Assembly: GCA_964035545.1 (NCBI GenBank)
Contig: OZ037770.1
Location: forward strand, 3,081,662 to 3,145,661
Direction of reading: 5' to 3'
DNA length: 64,000 bases
Source: Bugula neritina
Lineage: Eukaryota > Bryozoa > Gymnolaemata > Cheilostomatida > Bugulidae
Part shown: positions 26,345 to 32,838 of the stretch, piece after piece
How the letters are laid out: each line of letters opens with the position of its first letter
Position numbering within the stretch: the first letter of the stretch is position 1
Translations under genes and position numbers: made by a program
The notes under the pieces: generated by a model
The model's database searches: none
Seen by the model: the letters and a program-made list of their open reading frames with translations, nothing else
Told to the model about the DNA's origin: nothing

Positions 26345-26410
26345 TTAATCCATCAAATGCAAGCTGCATGCAATAACCCAGATCACAAAGAGCATATAAG
26401 TAGAGGTTTG
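26345..26410 (+). promoter_or_regulatory. Orphan copy of the Cys-peptide promoter
   Basis: Block ATCAAATGCAAGCTGCATG, then CAGATCACAAAGAG and CATATAAG, matches the promoter blocks at 26620-26675 and 28600-28660. No signal-peptide exon follows before the next copy about 270 bp downstream. It may be a tandem duplicate promoter of the first peptide gene or the remnant of a deleted gene. Confidence 0.6.
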
Positions 26411-26617
26411 TTATGTTTAATATAAAAGCTTTCTCTTTGTTACCAACTGCAATTATTGTCATAATTTTGATAAGTATAAAGCTGTTTTATTACCTATCCA
26501 TATGTTCATATATTATTATTATGTATTTATGGAGGTCATTGTAATACAATTCAAGAGTAAAGTAACTGAAATCAAATAAAATGCAGTTTATCATTACTTC
26601 CAGGTAATTGTTGAGCT

Positions 26618-26748
26618 CTTCATCCATCAGCGGCAAGCTGCATGTAATAATTCAGATCTCAAAGAGTATATAAGCAGAGATGTTTTATACTACAGAATGT
26701 GTATCTCCACTACATTACAACTTACAGACACAGTTTTACATAAGTCAG
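26618..26748 (+). promoter_or_regulatory. Promoter and non-coding exon 1 of Cys-peptide gene 1
   Basis: The conserved block AGCTGCATGTAATAATTCAG precedes a TATA box (TATATAAG, 26667-26674). The untranslated first exon would start about 30 bp later and ends at CAG|GTAAGAAACTA (donor at 26749). Gene 3 has the same exon end and donor at 31839-31840. Confidence 0.7.
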
Positions 26749-26921
26749 GTAAGAAACTAAATGTTCATTTGTTGTTTGGTTAACATTACTAGTTTGAATA
26801 ATTAAAGAATATTTCCTGATCCTATCGAATCAAATTTCCAAATTTCTATTAGTAATTATAAAACCTTTGTTTCGAGAAGAAGATAAAGCTGCAAATGGAT
26901 AAATAAGCGTCATATATATTA

Positions 26922-27018
26922 ACACACACACACACACACACACACACACACACACACACACACACACACACACACACACACACACACACACGCACGCACG
27001 CACGCACGCACGCACACA
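26922..27018. repeat. (CA)n microsatellite in intron 1 of Cys-peptide gene 1
   Basis: About 36 CA units followed by CACG units, about 50 bp upstream of exon 2. Confidence 0.95.
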
Positions 27019-27083
27019 GACCAATGTCTTTCTGTAACTTATAGAGATATATAAACTTATTTTTTGTAGGCTGAAGATTCAAC

Positions 27084-27457
27084 ATGAACATTGTAGCTTT
27101 CTTAGTAACTACCATTCTTGCCATGACTTTATTAGGTAAGTTTTAAATGTTTTGATAGGTTTCAAAATTTAACTTACAACCATCTATTATAAGCATTTCT
27201 TACAACATTTTTAATATTCTTATAATATATATTACATAATATTTTTAATTCAATGATTAAATCATATTTTTTGCAAAGCACTACTATAACTTATGGTTCA
27301 ATATTTTGCAAAATTTTCAATAGGTTTAGTGACAGCAGCTGACTGGACCAAAGACCCTAAGAAGTGCAAAAGTTTTTGTAAAAAGAAGGGTTTCAACTTC
27401 TCCAAACTAGAGTATGGTATGTGTGGATGTAAGAAGAAAGCCTCAGATAAATATTAA
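27084..27457 (+). CDS. Secreted 4-Cys peptide 1 (CS-alpha-beta-like, defensin-type candidate)
   Basis: The coding exons are 27084-27135 (preceded by untranslated sequence from 27070) and 27324-27457, joined in phase 1 inside a Gly codon, giving 61 residues. Residues 1 to about 22 form a signal peptide (MNIVAFLVTTILAMTLLG, then LVTA). The mature part begins near DWTKDPKKC and contains CKSFC, then fourteen residues, then CGC. It is strongly basic, with about 12 Lys against 4 acidic residues. The pattern C-x3-C...G-x-C-x-C is the core of the cysteine-stabilised alpha-beta fold: a helix carrying CxxxC and a strand carrying CxC. Only two disulfides are possible, fewer than ordinary defensins. Role inferred: secreted antimicrobial or signalling peptide. 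An AATAAA lies at 27614. First of three tandem paralogues. Confidence 0.85.
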
Positions 27458-27613
27458 CCAGAAAACAAACTCTCCCCCCCTCCTGTCTCTGGATAGTTTA
27501 ATATATTGCTTGTCTATTTATATTTGCCTCACAGTTGCAGATTGCATTTGTGTAACTTTTTAAATGTTCATTTCAAGCAGTTGAATGATTCCTTGTTTAT
27601 TTGTTTTCTAGAC

Positions 27614-27619
27614 AATAAA
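27614..27619 (+). terminator. Polyadenylation signal of Cys-peptide gene 1
   Basis: AATAAA in the context TAGACAATAAAACAAATGAT, 157 bp after the stop codon. The same context recurs after gene 2. Confidence 0.7.
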
Positions 27620-29976: not shown

Positions 29977-30106
29977 CAAGGGAACTGCCTTTGTGATCTT
30001 CACCTGATTTTTTGCATAAAATGAAAAATATTGTCAATTGACTTGCAGTTGATTTGTTCAGATTAGATCATCTGTGTAATGCTTATGTTCTATTTATTTT
30101 CTTGAC

Positions 30107-30112
30107 AATAAA
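30107..30112 (+). terminator. Polyadenylation signal of Cys-peptide gene 2
   Basis: AATAAA in the context CTTGACAATAAAACAACTGATG, matching the 3' end of gene 1. Confidence 0.7.
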
Positions 30113-31724
30113 ACAACTGATGCACACTAACTTCCAGTTTGCTATTTTACATGATAAACACAGTACATCACATGTATATGATGTACTGCGTTTATTTTTA
30201 TAATATTCTTTCTAAACTTGGACAGAATCCACTGTTCTAATGAATATGTCCATTTTCTTTCTTACTGTCACTTTTCTGACGACACTTTCTACAGTCTCCA
30301 TGCAAGCTATTTAGCCTACATGACCGAGGTTCAATCTCTAATAACATGGCTGTTATATTTCCCTAAAACTGTTAGCCTAGAGCCACACTGTGCGTATTTT
30401 CGCATGCAAAAATTGAAACCACGAGTAGCAAAGGTGGCCACTGTGTGCGTTGAGAAAACATTCGCACTTGTCGCTCAGCATTCTCAATGCAAGTGCGAAT
30501 CGTCTCTGTCCTCGTCACCTAATTGGCTGGTAGTTATTTAGCAAGCCCAATTCTTTTATTTTAGTGCTATATTTCAGTAAATTGCGTTTTATTAAAAGCG
30601 CGTGAGATCTAAAAATGAAAGCTTTATTTATCCCGCATCACTGATGCTACAGTGGACACCTATGCTACCTGTGGTTTCAACTTTCGCATGCGAAAATGTG
30701 CACAGTGTGGCCCTAGGCTTAGTCTATTTCAAAAACTACATTTTGATCTAAATAAACAGCTGTCATCATATTCAGCTTTCATTCTTTAACGTCCTCTTGC
30801 AGTTTAACTCCTTCAACTGACAAAAACGTTAATCCATGGCTCTTGAGGTTCAACATCTGAGCAAGCTTTGAATACAAGCCTGTGTAAACATTGCATAACC
30901 GACTTAAGTACACATTTTATTTGCCTCAGGATCAATTAAAAACTTCATTCTAATTATATATTGAATCAACAACAATTCCCAAAAATGACTCGATTTCCAA
31001 AACAGTAATTCTAGTATTCAAATGAAACAACATTTGCAGGTACTTATCTATGTACATAAAGTAACTATTGAAAAATACCAACTCTTCTTATACATGTTTC
31101 AAAATGTATTCTAGATAAAATTGCTTTTAATTCTATACTTCCAGCAATTGTGACCAACTAACTATAAATACATTTGGCTACATCATGTATTTTGTGGAAG
31201 CAGATTCCTTTGTTAGTTATTGTTAATGTTCTTCTGAACACCAGATATGTGATTAACAAAACATATTGCATTGTGAGAATAGAAATTCACCCTCAGTTAT
31301 CTACAATATAATAGAATAAATATTACCCTATTTTATGACCTGGCAAAGCGTTCATCACTCTCTAATAACTACATACAGCAATATAATATGTTCATGTATT
31401 TGCTGGGCTAATGTTCCACCATCATGATCATTTAGCTATAATAAACTTATAGTTAATGCTTATGCATCCTATTTATTAACTCTTTGCATGTTAGTTGTAT
31501 CTGTCATTCTAATTATTTTTCTCAGCATCAACACAGTCTATGTCAAACTTGAGTGAATTGCTTTCATTTTTAAGTTGAATCATCATTTAGTTTGACAGTT
31601 AAAGTATCAGAAAAAAAGTTATAAAATAAGCACTATTATATGCATTGCAGTTCTAGTAGCAATTCACTTGAACATTATCGGAAGTCCACGAGCTTATTGC
31701 AGTAAATCAAAGTATACTTAATCA
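30113..31724. other. Spacer between Cys-peptide genes 2 and 3
   Basis: Contains an inverted pair near 30385-30510 and 30680-30720 (TTTTCGCATGCAAAAATTGAA and TTTCGCATGCGAAAATGTGC, with GCCACACTGTG and CACAGTGTGGCC), probably a decayed MITE. The 107-codon frame across it is not convincing. Confidence 0.45.
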
Positions 31725-31839
31725 TCATCTTCAACTGAAAACTGCATCTCATAATCAAAGCGAGTGTTTTATATACCCCAGAATGTGTGTGTATCATCAC
31801 TACGTAACAGCGTACAAAACACAGTAGAACAAAAGTCAG
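31725..31839 (+). promoter_or_regulatory. Promoter and non-coding exon 1 of Cys-peptide gene 3
   Basis: The segment aligns with the gene 1 promoter: ACTGCATCTCATAATCAAAG, then TTTTATATACCCCAGAATGTG, ending AAAAGTCAG|GTAAGAAACTA. The TATA element is weaker (TTATATA) than in genes 1 and 2. Confidence 0.6.
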
Positions 31840-32023
31840 GTAAGAAACTAAATCTCTGCTTTACCCCAGAACCGAAATTCATAGTTTGATTTATTAGAGA
31901 CTAACTTTCATCTTCATAGATTCAGATAGACAATATTGTTCAATTTACTTTTGTTGGATTGACTTGCACTAGTGAATAAAAATCTTTTGTTTTGAAAAAG
32001 GATGAAACTAAATATATAACCCT

Positions 32024-32343
32024 ATATATATATATATATATAACCCTATATATATATATATATATATATATATATATATGGGGTTATATATATATATATA
32101 TATATATATATATATATATATATATATAACCCTATATATATATATATATATATATATATGGGGTTATATATATATATATATATATATATATATATATATA
32201 TATATATATATATAACCCTATATATATATATATATATATATATATATATATATATATATATATATGGGGTTATATATATATATATATATATATATATATA
32301 TATATATATATATATATATATATATATATATATATATATATAC
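32024..32343. repeat. (TA)n array with AACCCTA/TAGGGGT interruptions
   Basis: About 300 bp of TA, broken by alternating AACCC and GGGGTT words that are mutual complements. It fills intron 1 of Cys-peptide gene 3. Confidence 0.95.
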
Positions 32344-32418
32344 ACACATGTACACATACAGTTAAATATACACATACACAGCTTGTTATACTTCATGCTT
32401 GTAGATTACAGACTCAAT

Positions 32419-32838
32419 ATGAAGGTTCTTGCTTTGTTACTAACCGCCATTATTCTCACCAGTTCAATAGGTGAGTTTATTACTACTCTGTAACTACTAA
32501 CAATGGAGGATATACTTTTATATCAACATATTTTACAAACTCCATGTTAATATCTGCCTATAATGAAATCTATGACAACAAGTAGGCTAAATGCTAATTA
32601 TTTGGACGAATCAACAATATTACTATAAGATTAATCTTACAATATTCATATATTTGCTAGACACTATAACTGTGATATTGTTGAATATTCAGTATATATA
32701 GTTTCTATAATAGGTTCAGTAACTACTCTGTGGACCTCAAAACCTTCTGTGTGCAAGAAGCATTGTGTGAAGAGAGAACTTTACTCCTATAATCTAGCTT
32801 TTGGGTATTGCTTCTGCTCAAAGGGCCGAGCACCATGA
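32419..32838 (+). CDS. Secreted 4-Cys peptide 3 (CS-alpha-beta-like)
   Basis: The coding exons are 32419-32470 and 32714-32838, joined in phase 1, giving 58 residues. The signal peptide [18 protein letters not shown] differs from copy 2 by one residue. The mature part begins near [11 protein letters not shown] and has CKKHC, fourteen residues ending FGY, then CFC and a short SKGRAP tail. The Cys pattern is the same as in copies 1 and 2, but few other positions agree. Intron 1 contains an unstable-looking (TA)n block at 32024-32343. I saw no clear AATAAA within 200 bp after the stop. Confidence 0.83.

What the first reader, a model, noticed from the sequence alone, without database searches (positions are those of the whole stretch)
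26345..32838. Tandem array of three secreted peptides with an invariant two-disulfide C-x3-C-x14-C-x-C frame
Seen: three three-exon genes on one strand, same phase-1 intron inside the last Gly codon of the signal exon, same Cys spacing, and G-x-C before the third Cys in all copies. Known: CxxxC plus CxC is the disulfide core of CS-alpha-beta defensins, which normally carry three or more disulfides. Inference: a minimal, possibly undescribed defensin-like effector family. The exons are too short or frame-shifted by introns to appear in ORF scans.
Basis: partly seen in the sequence, partly recalled or inferred. Interest (0 to 1): 0.88.

Follow-up and report, generated by a model that had tools for sequence, protein, structure and literature searches.

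The report
Two-disulfide defensins of a bryozoan
Three neighbouring genes of the moss animal Bugula neritina encode small secreted peptides that look like defensins which have lost one of the three usual disulfide bonds, and they belong to a larger family in a genome that also holds relatives with the usual bonds.

Summary
Three gt/ag-spliced genes lie at the stated junctions, with a phase-1 intron in the signal-peptide exon and C-x3-C-x14-C-x-C in the mature exon; these are the only x14 matches in six frames. Contig lengths identify Bugula neritina, chromosome 6. I found 18 family loci in the genome, 16 without internal stops, all 16 cationic. Four database hits are B. neritina hypothetical proteins, one 98% identical to copy b's mature peptide. 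The same genome has six-cysteine CS-alpha-beta defensins, including a 19-place array (two read); the copy whose upstream was read has a like signal exon and leader. The family aligns to five of them beyond the cysteines (hhalign 94%; 0 of 200 Cys-keeping permutations as good). The Cys1 and Cys4 positions are hydrophobic in 15 of 16 members each. Best reading: a defensin branch that exchanged the Cys1-Cys4 bond for a hydrophobic contact, probably secreted for host defence. Expression, bonding and activity are untested. The four-cysteine precedent found is bacterial (AdDLP). Against this: weak fold and PDB scores, and the best single Pfam match is WSC (sub-threshold).

The parts
26348..26472 (+). 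relic upstream of gene a: second promoter block (26348-26405) directly followed by an exon-2-like piece (26416-26472)
   Evidence: local alignments: promoter+exon 1 of gene a score 96, exon 2 of gene b score 46; shuffle maxima 42 and 31
26616..26674 (+). gene a proximal promoter block ending in TATATAAG
   Evidence: score 86 vs shuffle maximum 39
26697..26748 (+). gene a exon 1 (non-coding; 5' end estimated about 30 nt after TATA)
   Evidence: cag|gtaag donor, read by eye
27070..27135 (+). gene a exon 2: short 5'UTR and signal peptide (ATG 27084)
27324..27457 (+). gene a exon 3: mature peptide and stop, C-x3-C-x14-C-x-C at 27365-27430
28599..28659 (+). gene b promoter: CCAAT box (AACCAATCA 28604-28612) to TATATAAA
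   Evidence: score 78 vs shuffle maximum 39; one of two places in the genome pattern search; AACCAATCA alone is expected about once by chance in the window
28690..28754 (+). gene b exon 1 (5' end estimated)
   Evidence: residues of P0001 match its end, read by eye
29408..29473 (+). gene b exon 2: 5'UTR and signal peptide (ATG 29422)
29837..29976 (+). gene b exon 3: mature peptide and stop, motif at 29884-29949
   Evidence: mature part 98% identical to P0001
31731..31776 (+). gene c promoter-like block (weaker) to TATATA
   Evidence: score 38, shuffle 95% point 32, maximum 39; promoter plus exon 1 81% identical to gene a
31800..31839 (+). gene c exon 1 (5' end estimated)
32405..32470 (+). gene c exon 2: 5'UTR and signal peptide (ATG 32419)
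   Evidence: 67 of 70 nt identical to gene b
32714..32838 (+). gene c exon 3: mature peptide and stop, motif at 32752-32817

Best explanation
The three genes are members of a Bugula neritina family of secreted, cationic, four-cysteine peptides. The family is a branch of the animal CS-alpha-beta defensins in which the Cys1-Cys4 disulfide was lost. The two remaining bonds (defensin Cys2-Cys5 and Cys3-Cys6) still staple the helix to the last strand. A hydrophobic pair, most often Trp or Phe with Leu or Phe, sits where Cys1 and Cys4 used to be and probably takes over their packing. Shown by sequence: gene structure, family, positive charge, similarity beyond the cysteines to six-cysteine defensins of the same genome, and the substitution pattern. 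Predicted: secretion, fold and bond pairing. Inferred: the peptides are released at body surfaces or from coelomocytes and act as host-defence peptides on bacterial envelopes, from a CCAAT/TATA promoter shared by most copies. Signal exons of gene b and gene c were homogenised by gene conversion or exon exchange, so each pairs a shared secretion leader with an independently diverging mature exon.
For: Junctions and frame. Eighteen loci found, 16 free of stops, on chromosomes 1, 2, 3, 6 and 9. Net charge +3 to +8 in 16 of 16. A hydrophobic signal exon from ATG to a gt donor was found for 15 of 16 (outside the window the script listed only phase-1 donors, so phase there was a condition, checked against the exon-3 acceptor by eye). 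Six-cysteine relatives: C9:7149089 and C2:31395753, 19 places at C9:4.43-4.58 Mb of which two were read, and C9:10427885. The array copy at C9:4431383 has a like signal exon, phase and leader ASVAEA, as against ASTAEA and GSVEAA here. All five six-cysteine sequences read have 14 positions between the second helix Cys and C-x-C, Cys4 included. hhalign of the 16 mature sequences with these five: probability 94.4, score 33.3; 200 column permutations keeping the cysteines: mean 12.2, maximum 25.0, 0 as good. With the 13-member alignment, C9:7149 alone gives 91.0%. Cys1 and Cys4 columns are hydrophobic in 15 of 16 each; the other 27 non-Cys columns have mean 3.9 and maximum 13. AlphaFold2: copy b strand-helix-strand-strand, pLDDT 76; copy c helix-strand-strand, pLDDT 78. 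Foldseek ranks 1-10 of copy b: nine scorpion toxins or variants and one mosquito-defensin variant. Mollusc, arthropod and scorpion defensin genes have a phase-I intron before an unsplit mature exon (PMC6435467, passages). b/c mosaic.
Against: [quoted passage not shown] Foldseek E-values are weak (copy b best 0.41); copy c gives a mixture with best probability 0.25 (50 of 108 rows seen). The alignment behind the models had 7 sequences and pTM is 0.45. Single six-cysteine sequences against the 16-member mature profile are weak: C9:7149 probability 14.6%, 1 of 150 Cys-fixed shuffles as good; C2:31395 0.6%, 26 of 150. PDB profile hits have E > 0.05; the mature-only profile ranks ribosomal protein uL16 first, with 4 of 42 hits CS-alpha-beta. 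The best Pfam match of any member is to WSC (copy a, E 3e-5, below cut-off), better than any match to a defensin family; three further members scanned matched no defensin family. The Defensin_2 model found none of these loci. Copy b has Arg at the Cys4 position, one member lacks the first Cys, one has five cysteines. No RNA, mass or activity data. The tree is unrooted and weakly supported, so loss rather than gain of the bond rests on the commonness of the six-cysteine form.
Confidence: 0.73

Rival explanations
1. The peptides are cut-down WSC (or PAN-like) domains: that fold also staples a helix (C-x3-C) to a strand (C-x-C) and Bugula has a very large WSC family, so the peptides would bind carbohydrate or sit in extracellular matrix.
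For: Copy a matches Pfam WSC at E 3e-5 (24.6 bits, cut-off 27.8), the best Pfam match of any member; 2 of 13 members match at E<=1. The genome search reports 151 WSC matches from 150 scored of 253 candidates; all but 13 of the listed rows are above the cut-off. Kremen and a PAN module occur among Foldseek hits of copy b (ranks 25, 46 and 37).
Against: In 10 of 12 Bugula WSC exons read, C-x3-C is not on the exon that carries C-x-C, whereas here both lie on one exon. Two WSC pieces scored no better than their own Cys-fixed shuffles (24 and 149 of 150 as good). The other WSC cysteines are absent. Leader and signal exon link the family to defensins instead.
Confidence: 0.08
2. Two-disulfide CS-alpha-beta peptides recruited for another role, such as ion-channel modulation, deterrence of grazers or competitors, or cell signalling, rather than killing microbes.
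For: Foldseek neighbours of copy b are mostly scorpion channel toxins, which share the scaffold. AdDLP, the four-cysteine bacterial peptide, was inactive on bacteria and fungi but active on a Plasmodium (PMC5116183, passages). In Drosophila virilis a two-disulfide defensin derivative neutralises a toxin and kills little (PMC11116330, passages).
Against: The scaffold does not tell function; no channel-binding motif was tested; positive charge in 16 of 16 also fits membrane action.
Confidence: 0.25
3. The four-cysteine form is ancestral (as proposed for myxobacterial peptides) and the six-cysteine Bugula defensins gained the third bond.
For: Zhu's proposal as told in PMC11561630 and PMC5116183 (passages). 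The unrooted tree groups the five six-cysteine sequences (support 83), with C9:7476272 beside them (73).
Against: Six-cysteine CS-alpha-beta peptides are spread over animals, plants and fungi (established knowledge), so loss in one bryozoan family is simpler.
Confidence: 0.08
4. The three window genes are decaying copies and not functional.
For: Two of the 18 loci carry internal stops, one lacks the usual ATG and one the first Cys. A promoter-plus-exon-2 relic lies upstream of gene a. Gene c has no AATAAA or ATTAAA within 600 nt of the start of exon 3.
Against: The window copies keep frame, junctions, TATA and all four cysteines although mature exons b and c are only 41% and 38% identical to copy a. 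An orthologue of copy b is intact and modelled in a second population.
Confidence: 0.06

Closest known systems
Invertebrate CS-alpha-beta defensins with three disulfides (Pfam Defensin_2 and kin; insect and scorpion defensins)
   Same: C-x3-C and C-x-C spacing, predicted fold order, signal peptide, unsplit mature exon after a phase-I intron
   Different: Cys1-Cys4 bond missing; both sites hydrophobic in 15 of 16 members
Six-cysteine defensins of the same genome (array at C9:4.43-4.58 Mb; C9:7149089; C9:10427885; C2:31395753)
   Same: Cys3-to-Cys5 spacing and sequence profile in the five read; leader, signal exon and intron phase in the one array copy whose upstream was read
   Different: six cysteines; 16 of 19 array places score identically whereas the four-cysteine family is dispersed and divergent
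AdDLP and the Stigmatella four-cysteine peptide of myxobacteria
   Same: only the C-x3-C / C-x-C motif, four cysteines (PMC5116183, passages)
   Different: bacterial; lacks the gamma-core G-x-C according to PMC5116183; read there as ancestral, whereas the Bugula form looks derived; sequences not compared here
DvirARP of Drosophila virilis (PMC11116330)
   Same: two-disulfide descendant of an animal defensin gene
   Different: it lost the helix cysteines Cys2 and Cys3, kept Cys1-Cys4 and changed fold (passages); here the opposite pair is lost and the fold is predicted to stay
Myticin (Pfam PF10690)
   Same: 6 of 13 members match weakly, best E 0.0009
   Different: myticins have eight cysteines (PMC5116183, passage)

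Membership tests
CS-alpha-beta defensins | C-x3-C in a helix and C-x-C in the last strand (CSH motif) | tested here: met
   motif in 15 of 16 stop-free members (one has Tyr for the first Cys); helix at C-x3-C and strand at C-x-C in two models
CS-alpha-beta defensins | third disulfide Cys1-Cys4 completing the fold | tested here: not met
   neither position is Cys in any of the 16; one member has a Cys two positions further upstream
CS-alpha-beta defensins | strand-helix-strand-strand fold | tested here: inconclusive
   copy b full order, pLDDT 76; copy c helix and two strands, pLDDT 78, mixed Foldseek hits
CS-alpha-beta defensins | mature exon not split, preceded by a phase-I intron | tested here: met
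   window copies; other members with phase 1 as a search condition; criterion from PMC6435467 (passages)
CS-alpha-beta defensins | sequence homology to accepted members | tested here: met
   hhalign 94.4%, 0 of 200 Cys-keeping permutations as good, against five six-cysteine Bugula sequences; two of these five were scanned and match CS-alpha-beta Pfam models only below cut-off; weaker with single sequences
CS-alpha-beta defensins | antimicrobial activity | not testable with these tools
   needs peptide and assay
WSC domain (PF01822) | Pfam match above the curated cut-off over the whole domain with its further cysteines | tested here: not met
   24.6 bits against 27.8 for copy a; 2 of 13 members match at E<=1
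Myticin (PF10690) | eight cysteines; Pfam match above cut-off | tested here: not met
   four cysteines; copy b 14.7 bits against 28.5; best of 13 members E 0.0009, its bits not shown
Myxobacterial four-cysteine defensin-like peptides | four cysteines in the CSH arrangement | tested here: met
Myxobacterial four-cysteine defensin-like peptides | common descent with AdDLP | not tested
   AdDLP was not fetched; the protein database search returned only Bugula proteins

The most novel reading that the evidence does not exclude
An animal lineage turned three-disulfide defensins into a diversified family (at least 16 stop-free genes) of two-disulfide defensins. The Cys1-Cys4 bond was exchanged for a Trp/Phe-Leu/Phe hydrophobic clasp that keeps the fold. 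[quoted passage not shown]
Probability: 0.5. Interest if true: 0.7.

Novelty: new variant of a known kind. Interest (0 to 1): 0.57.

Why it matters
The Cys1-Cys4 bond is treated as part of the definition of the CS-alpha-beta fold, and four-cysteine forms have been discussed as bacterial ancestors (PMC5116183, passages). A genome that holds both six- and four-cysteine genes lets one test directly how a disulfide is lost without losing the fold, and what that changes in stability or target. Among the papers I searched, the one bryozoan defence peptide seen is a big defensin in Flustra foliacea (PMC7203481, one passage), although B. neritina is known for symbiont-linked bryostatins.

Tried and rejected
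WSC origin: tested with Pfam, exon structure and hhalign, disfavoured but not excluded. Chance: rejected (three x14 frames in the window, all in spliceable genes). Further copies in the window, both strands (alignments): besides the relic at 26348-26472, only marginal gapped matches just above shuffle maxima, namely exon-2a-like at 58984-59047 minus (37 against 31), exon-3b-like at 61910-62003 minus (37 against 35) and promoter-like in AT-rich repeats at 47.6-48.8 kb (44-46 against 42); not taken as copies. Positive selection as the sole cause of b/c divergence: not needed, because identity also collapses inside intron 2. Rfam: no match in the window. A protein search with the array defensin found no candidate. 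PDB search with the mature-only profile gave mostly uL16, 4 of 42 hits CS-alpha-beta; two column-permuted controls gave none in 2 and 3 hits. The Defensin_2 model on the genome gave 4 matches, best E 0.7; two are six-cysteine defensins, the other two looked like neither. The promoter consensus was composed by eye from members, so its scan is partly circular: 11 of 17 loci tested exceed every shuffle, 3 lie between the 95% point and the maximum, 3 do not stand out; C9:7475290 was not tested. Of three six-cysteine loci tested, C9:7149 is below its 95% point, C2:31395 just above it, and the array copy (24) exceeds shuffles (maximum 20) that are diluted by N. Exon 2 starts used were one base off; searches give the right frame.
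Full report
WHERE IT IS. The window lies at G000:C6:3081662-3145661 of a 215.8 Mb genome in 295 contigs. The lengths of contigs C1, C2, C3, C4, C5, C6, C8 and C9 equal those of chromosomes 1, 2, 3, 4, 5, 6, 8 and 9 in Table 3 of the Bugula neritina genome note PMC11480708 (passages). The organism is the bryozoan B. neritina, assembly tzBugNeri2.1.

THE OBSERVATION. Three genes on the + strand each have a TATA box, a short exon 1 ending at gt, an exon 2 with 5'UTR and signal peptide, and an exon 3 with the mature peptide and stop (exon 1 read by eye). 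The stated junctions are exact; the second intron is phase 1 in a Gly codon. Copy a: MNIVAFLVTTILAMTLLG/LVTAADWTKDPKKCKSFCKKKGFNFSKLEYGMCGCKKKASDKY. Copy b: [63 protein letters not shown]. Copy c: [59 protein letters not shown] six-frame scan of 64 kb found the x14 frame only at these three places. Upstream of gene a lies a relic, a second promoter block (26348-26405) followed directly by an exon-2-like piece (26416-26472).

IT IS A GENE FAMILY. Protein searches of the whole genome and reading of the loci give 18 loci: the three window copies; C6:3405756; C3:8035157, 6284667, 6288015, 6291154, 5349265, 5344985, 2851173 and 9919909; C1:14037333; C2:31329956; C9:7472981, 7488357, about 7476272, and 7475290. 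Two (C3:9919909, C9:7475290) contain stops. Of the 16 others, 15 have an ATG-to-donor hydrophobic exon; for loci outside the window the script listed phase-1 donors only. C6:3405756 has that exon without ATG at the usual place; in-frame ATGs lie 24 and more codons upstream. The frame is x14 in 13 and x15 in 3 of 16; C3:8035157 has Tyr for the first Cys; C9:7476272 has a fifth Cys upstream. G-x-C occurs in 12 of 16. Net charge from nine residues before the first motif Cys to the end is +3 to +8 in 16 of 16. The search tool scores only its best candidates, so 18 is a lower bound.

INDEPENDENT ANNOTATION. A profile search of 5.77 billion proteins returned 4 hits at E <= 0.1 among 1049 candidates, all B. 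neritina hypothetical proteins EB796_*. P0001 is the copy-b orthologue, 98% identical to the mature peptide; its first residues match the end of exon 1, read by eye. Those models come from AUGUSTUS with a transcriptome as hints, in colonies from Virginia (PMC7576161, passages). I saw no reads.

STRUCTURE. AlphaFold2 with 7 aligned sequences gives copy b as E2-3, H8-17, E22-26, E29-33 (pLDDT 76, pTM 0.45) and copy c as H6-15, E19-22, E28-31 (pLDDT 78, pTM 0.45). The first ten Foldseek hits of copy b in the PDB are nine scorpion toxins or variants and one mosquito-defensin variant (E 0.41 to 2.5, TM by query 0.42-0.65); all 49 hits have E above 0.4. For copy c such folds are mixed with unrelated ones (50 of 108 rows shown). 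That these names are CS-alpha-beta peptides is recalled.

SEQUENCE SEARCHES. Against the PDB, the 13-member profile with signal peptides has 17 hits at E <= 10, of which 9 are CS-alpha-beta peptides by name: three mosquito-defensin variants (2e3e first, E 0.051), ARD1, nasonin-1 and 1M, mytilin-B, cobatoxin 1, MarKTX-7. With 16 mature sequences, 4 of 42 are, and uL16 leads; two controls with columns permuted around fixed cysteines have none in 2 and 3 hits. Pfam matches of 13 members at E <= 1: Myticin-prepro 6, WSC 2 (best of all, E 3e-5), Defensin_2 1, Defensin-like 1, and six other families 1 each. Three later members matched no defensin family.

THE SIX-CYSTEINE RELATIVES. The Pfam Defensin_2 model led to C9:7149089 and C2:31395753, with six cysteines in defensin order; each matches five CS-alpha-beta Pfam models below cut-off. 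A search with the first found 23 places: itself, C2:31395753, C9:10427885, C2:28477250 (not read) and 19 in an array at C9:4.43-4.58 Mb, 16 of which score identically. Two array exons and C9:10427885 were read. The array copy at C9:4431383 has the signal exon MKVIAVFVIAMLVIMAL, a phase-1 intron and the leader ASVAEA before YGCPKYPSKCKKYCKGKGYSSYKCSGSSCKC, which parallels ASTAEA and GSVEAA in the four-cysteine peptides. hhalign of 16 mature four-cysteine with five six-cysteine sequences gives 94.4% and score 33.3; of 200 column permutations that keep the cysteines none reached it (maximum 25.0). Single sequences were weaker: 91.0% for C9:7149 with the 13-member alignment, but 14.6% with the mature one (1 of 150 shuffles as good), and 0.6% for C2:31395 (26 of 150).

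WHAT REPLACED THE BOND. Aligned on the cysteines by hand, Cys1 falls on Trp (8), Phe (4), Tyr, Ile or Leu, and Cys4 on Leu (7), Phe (4), Tyr (2), Met or Val: 15 of 16 are hydrophobic at each, against a mean of 3.9 and a maximum of 13 at the other 27 non-Cys columns. The exceptions are copy b (Arg at Cys4) and C9:7476272 (Arg at Cys1). For the three x15 members the Cys4 column depends on where the gap is put. A packed pair replacing the bond is an inference from this pattern.

PROMOTER AND EXON MIXING. A block AACCAATCA-...-AAGCTGCATGTAATAAT-...-TATATAAG lies before exon 1: 11 of 17 loci exceed all shuffles, 3 more the 95% point (the consensus was drawn from members). A genome pattern search with 3 mismatches found two places, both before family members. 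Between b and c, exon 2 is 67 of 70 and the start of intron 2 69 of 73 identical (z 26 and 24), while exon 3 (z 2.1) and the promoter (z 3.8) are far less alike; gene c's promoter and exon 1 are closer to gene a's (100 of 124, z 11). This looks like gene conversion or exon exchange that homogenises the leader.

RIVALS. WSC: Bugula has a large WSC expansion and the cores resemble each other, but in 10 of 12 WSC exons read C-x3-C and C-x-C are not on one exon. Decay: unlikely for the window copies. Function other than killing: open.

NOVELTY. Paper searches used: (open PubMed Central papers only). In the listings and passages I saw four-cysteine defensin-like peptides in myxobacteria (PMC5116183, PMC11561630; passages) and a different two-disulfide derivative in Drosophila (PMC11116330; passages), and neither a four-cysteine CS-alpha-beta family in an animal nor this family in Bryozoa. 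This does not show that none is published elsewhere. The family fails the third-disulfide test, so it is filed as a derived two-disulfide variant of CS-alpha-beta defensins, not as an ordinary member.

Noticed in passing
G000:C9:4431383-4577597 (L076, L077, L079): Array of 19 places matching six-cysteine defensin exons, on both strands, 16 scoring identically: a possible very recent amplification. Two were read.
   Followed up: partly
G000, clusters at C4:23.06-23.12, C5:3.6-3.8 and C3:15.1-15.9 Mb among others: Very large WSC-domain expansion: 253 candidates, 150 scored, 151 matches; all but 13 listed rows above the Pfam cut-off.
   Followed up: partly
G000:C9:7476272 (L074): Divergent family member with a fifth cysteine (followed by Pro, as in four of the five six-cysteine defensins read) but none at Cys4: a possible intermediate of bond loss.
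   Followed up: partly
window 26348-26472: Relic of a further copy: promoter block fused to an exon-2-like piece; no exon 3 of its own seen before gene a.
   Followed up: partly
window 27737-28190 and 41554-42326: Two minisatellites of related ACACTACAGTAT-type units about 13 kb apart.
   Followed up: no
window 29123-29300 and 29650-29730: tRNA-like repeat pieces (possible SINEs), one inside intron 2 of gene b; judged by eye, no Rfam match.
   Followed up: no
window 19903-20979 (-) and 62027-63991 (-): Neighbouring genes: a GT10 fucosyltransferase, and a TPR protein with a 132-bp tandem repeat and a match to nephrocystin-3 TPRs.
   Followed up: partly
G000:C6:3405756 (L004): Family member whose signal exon has no ATG at the usual place; in-frame ATGs lie 24 or more codons upstream.
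   Followed up: partly
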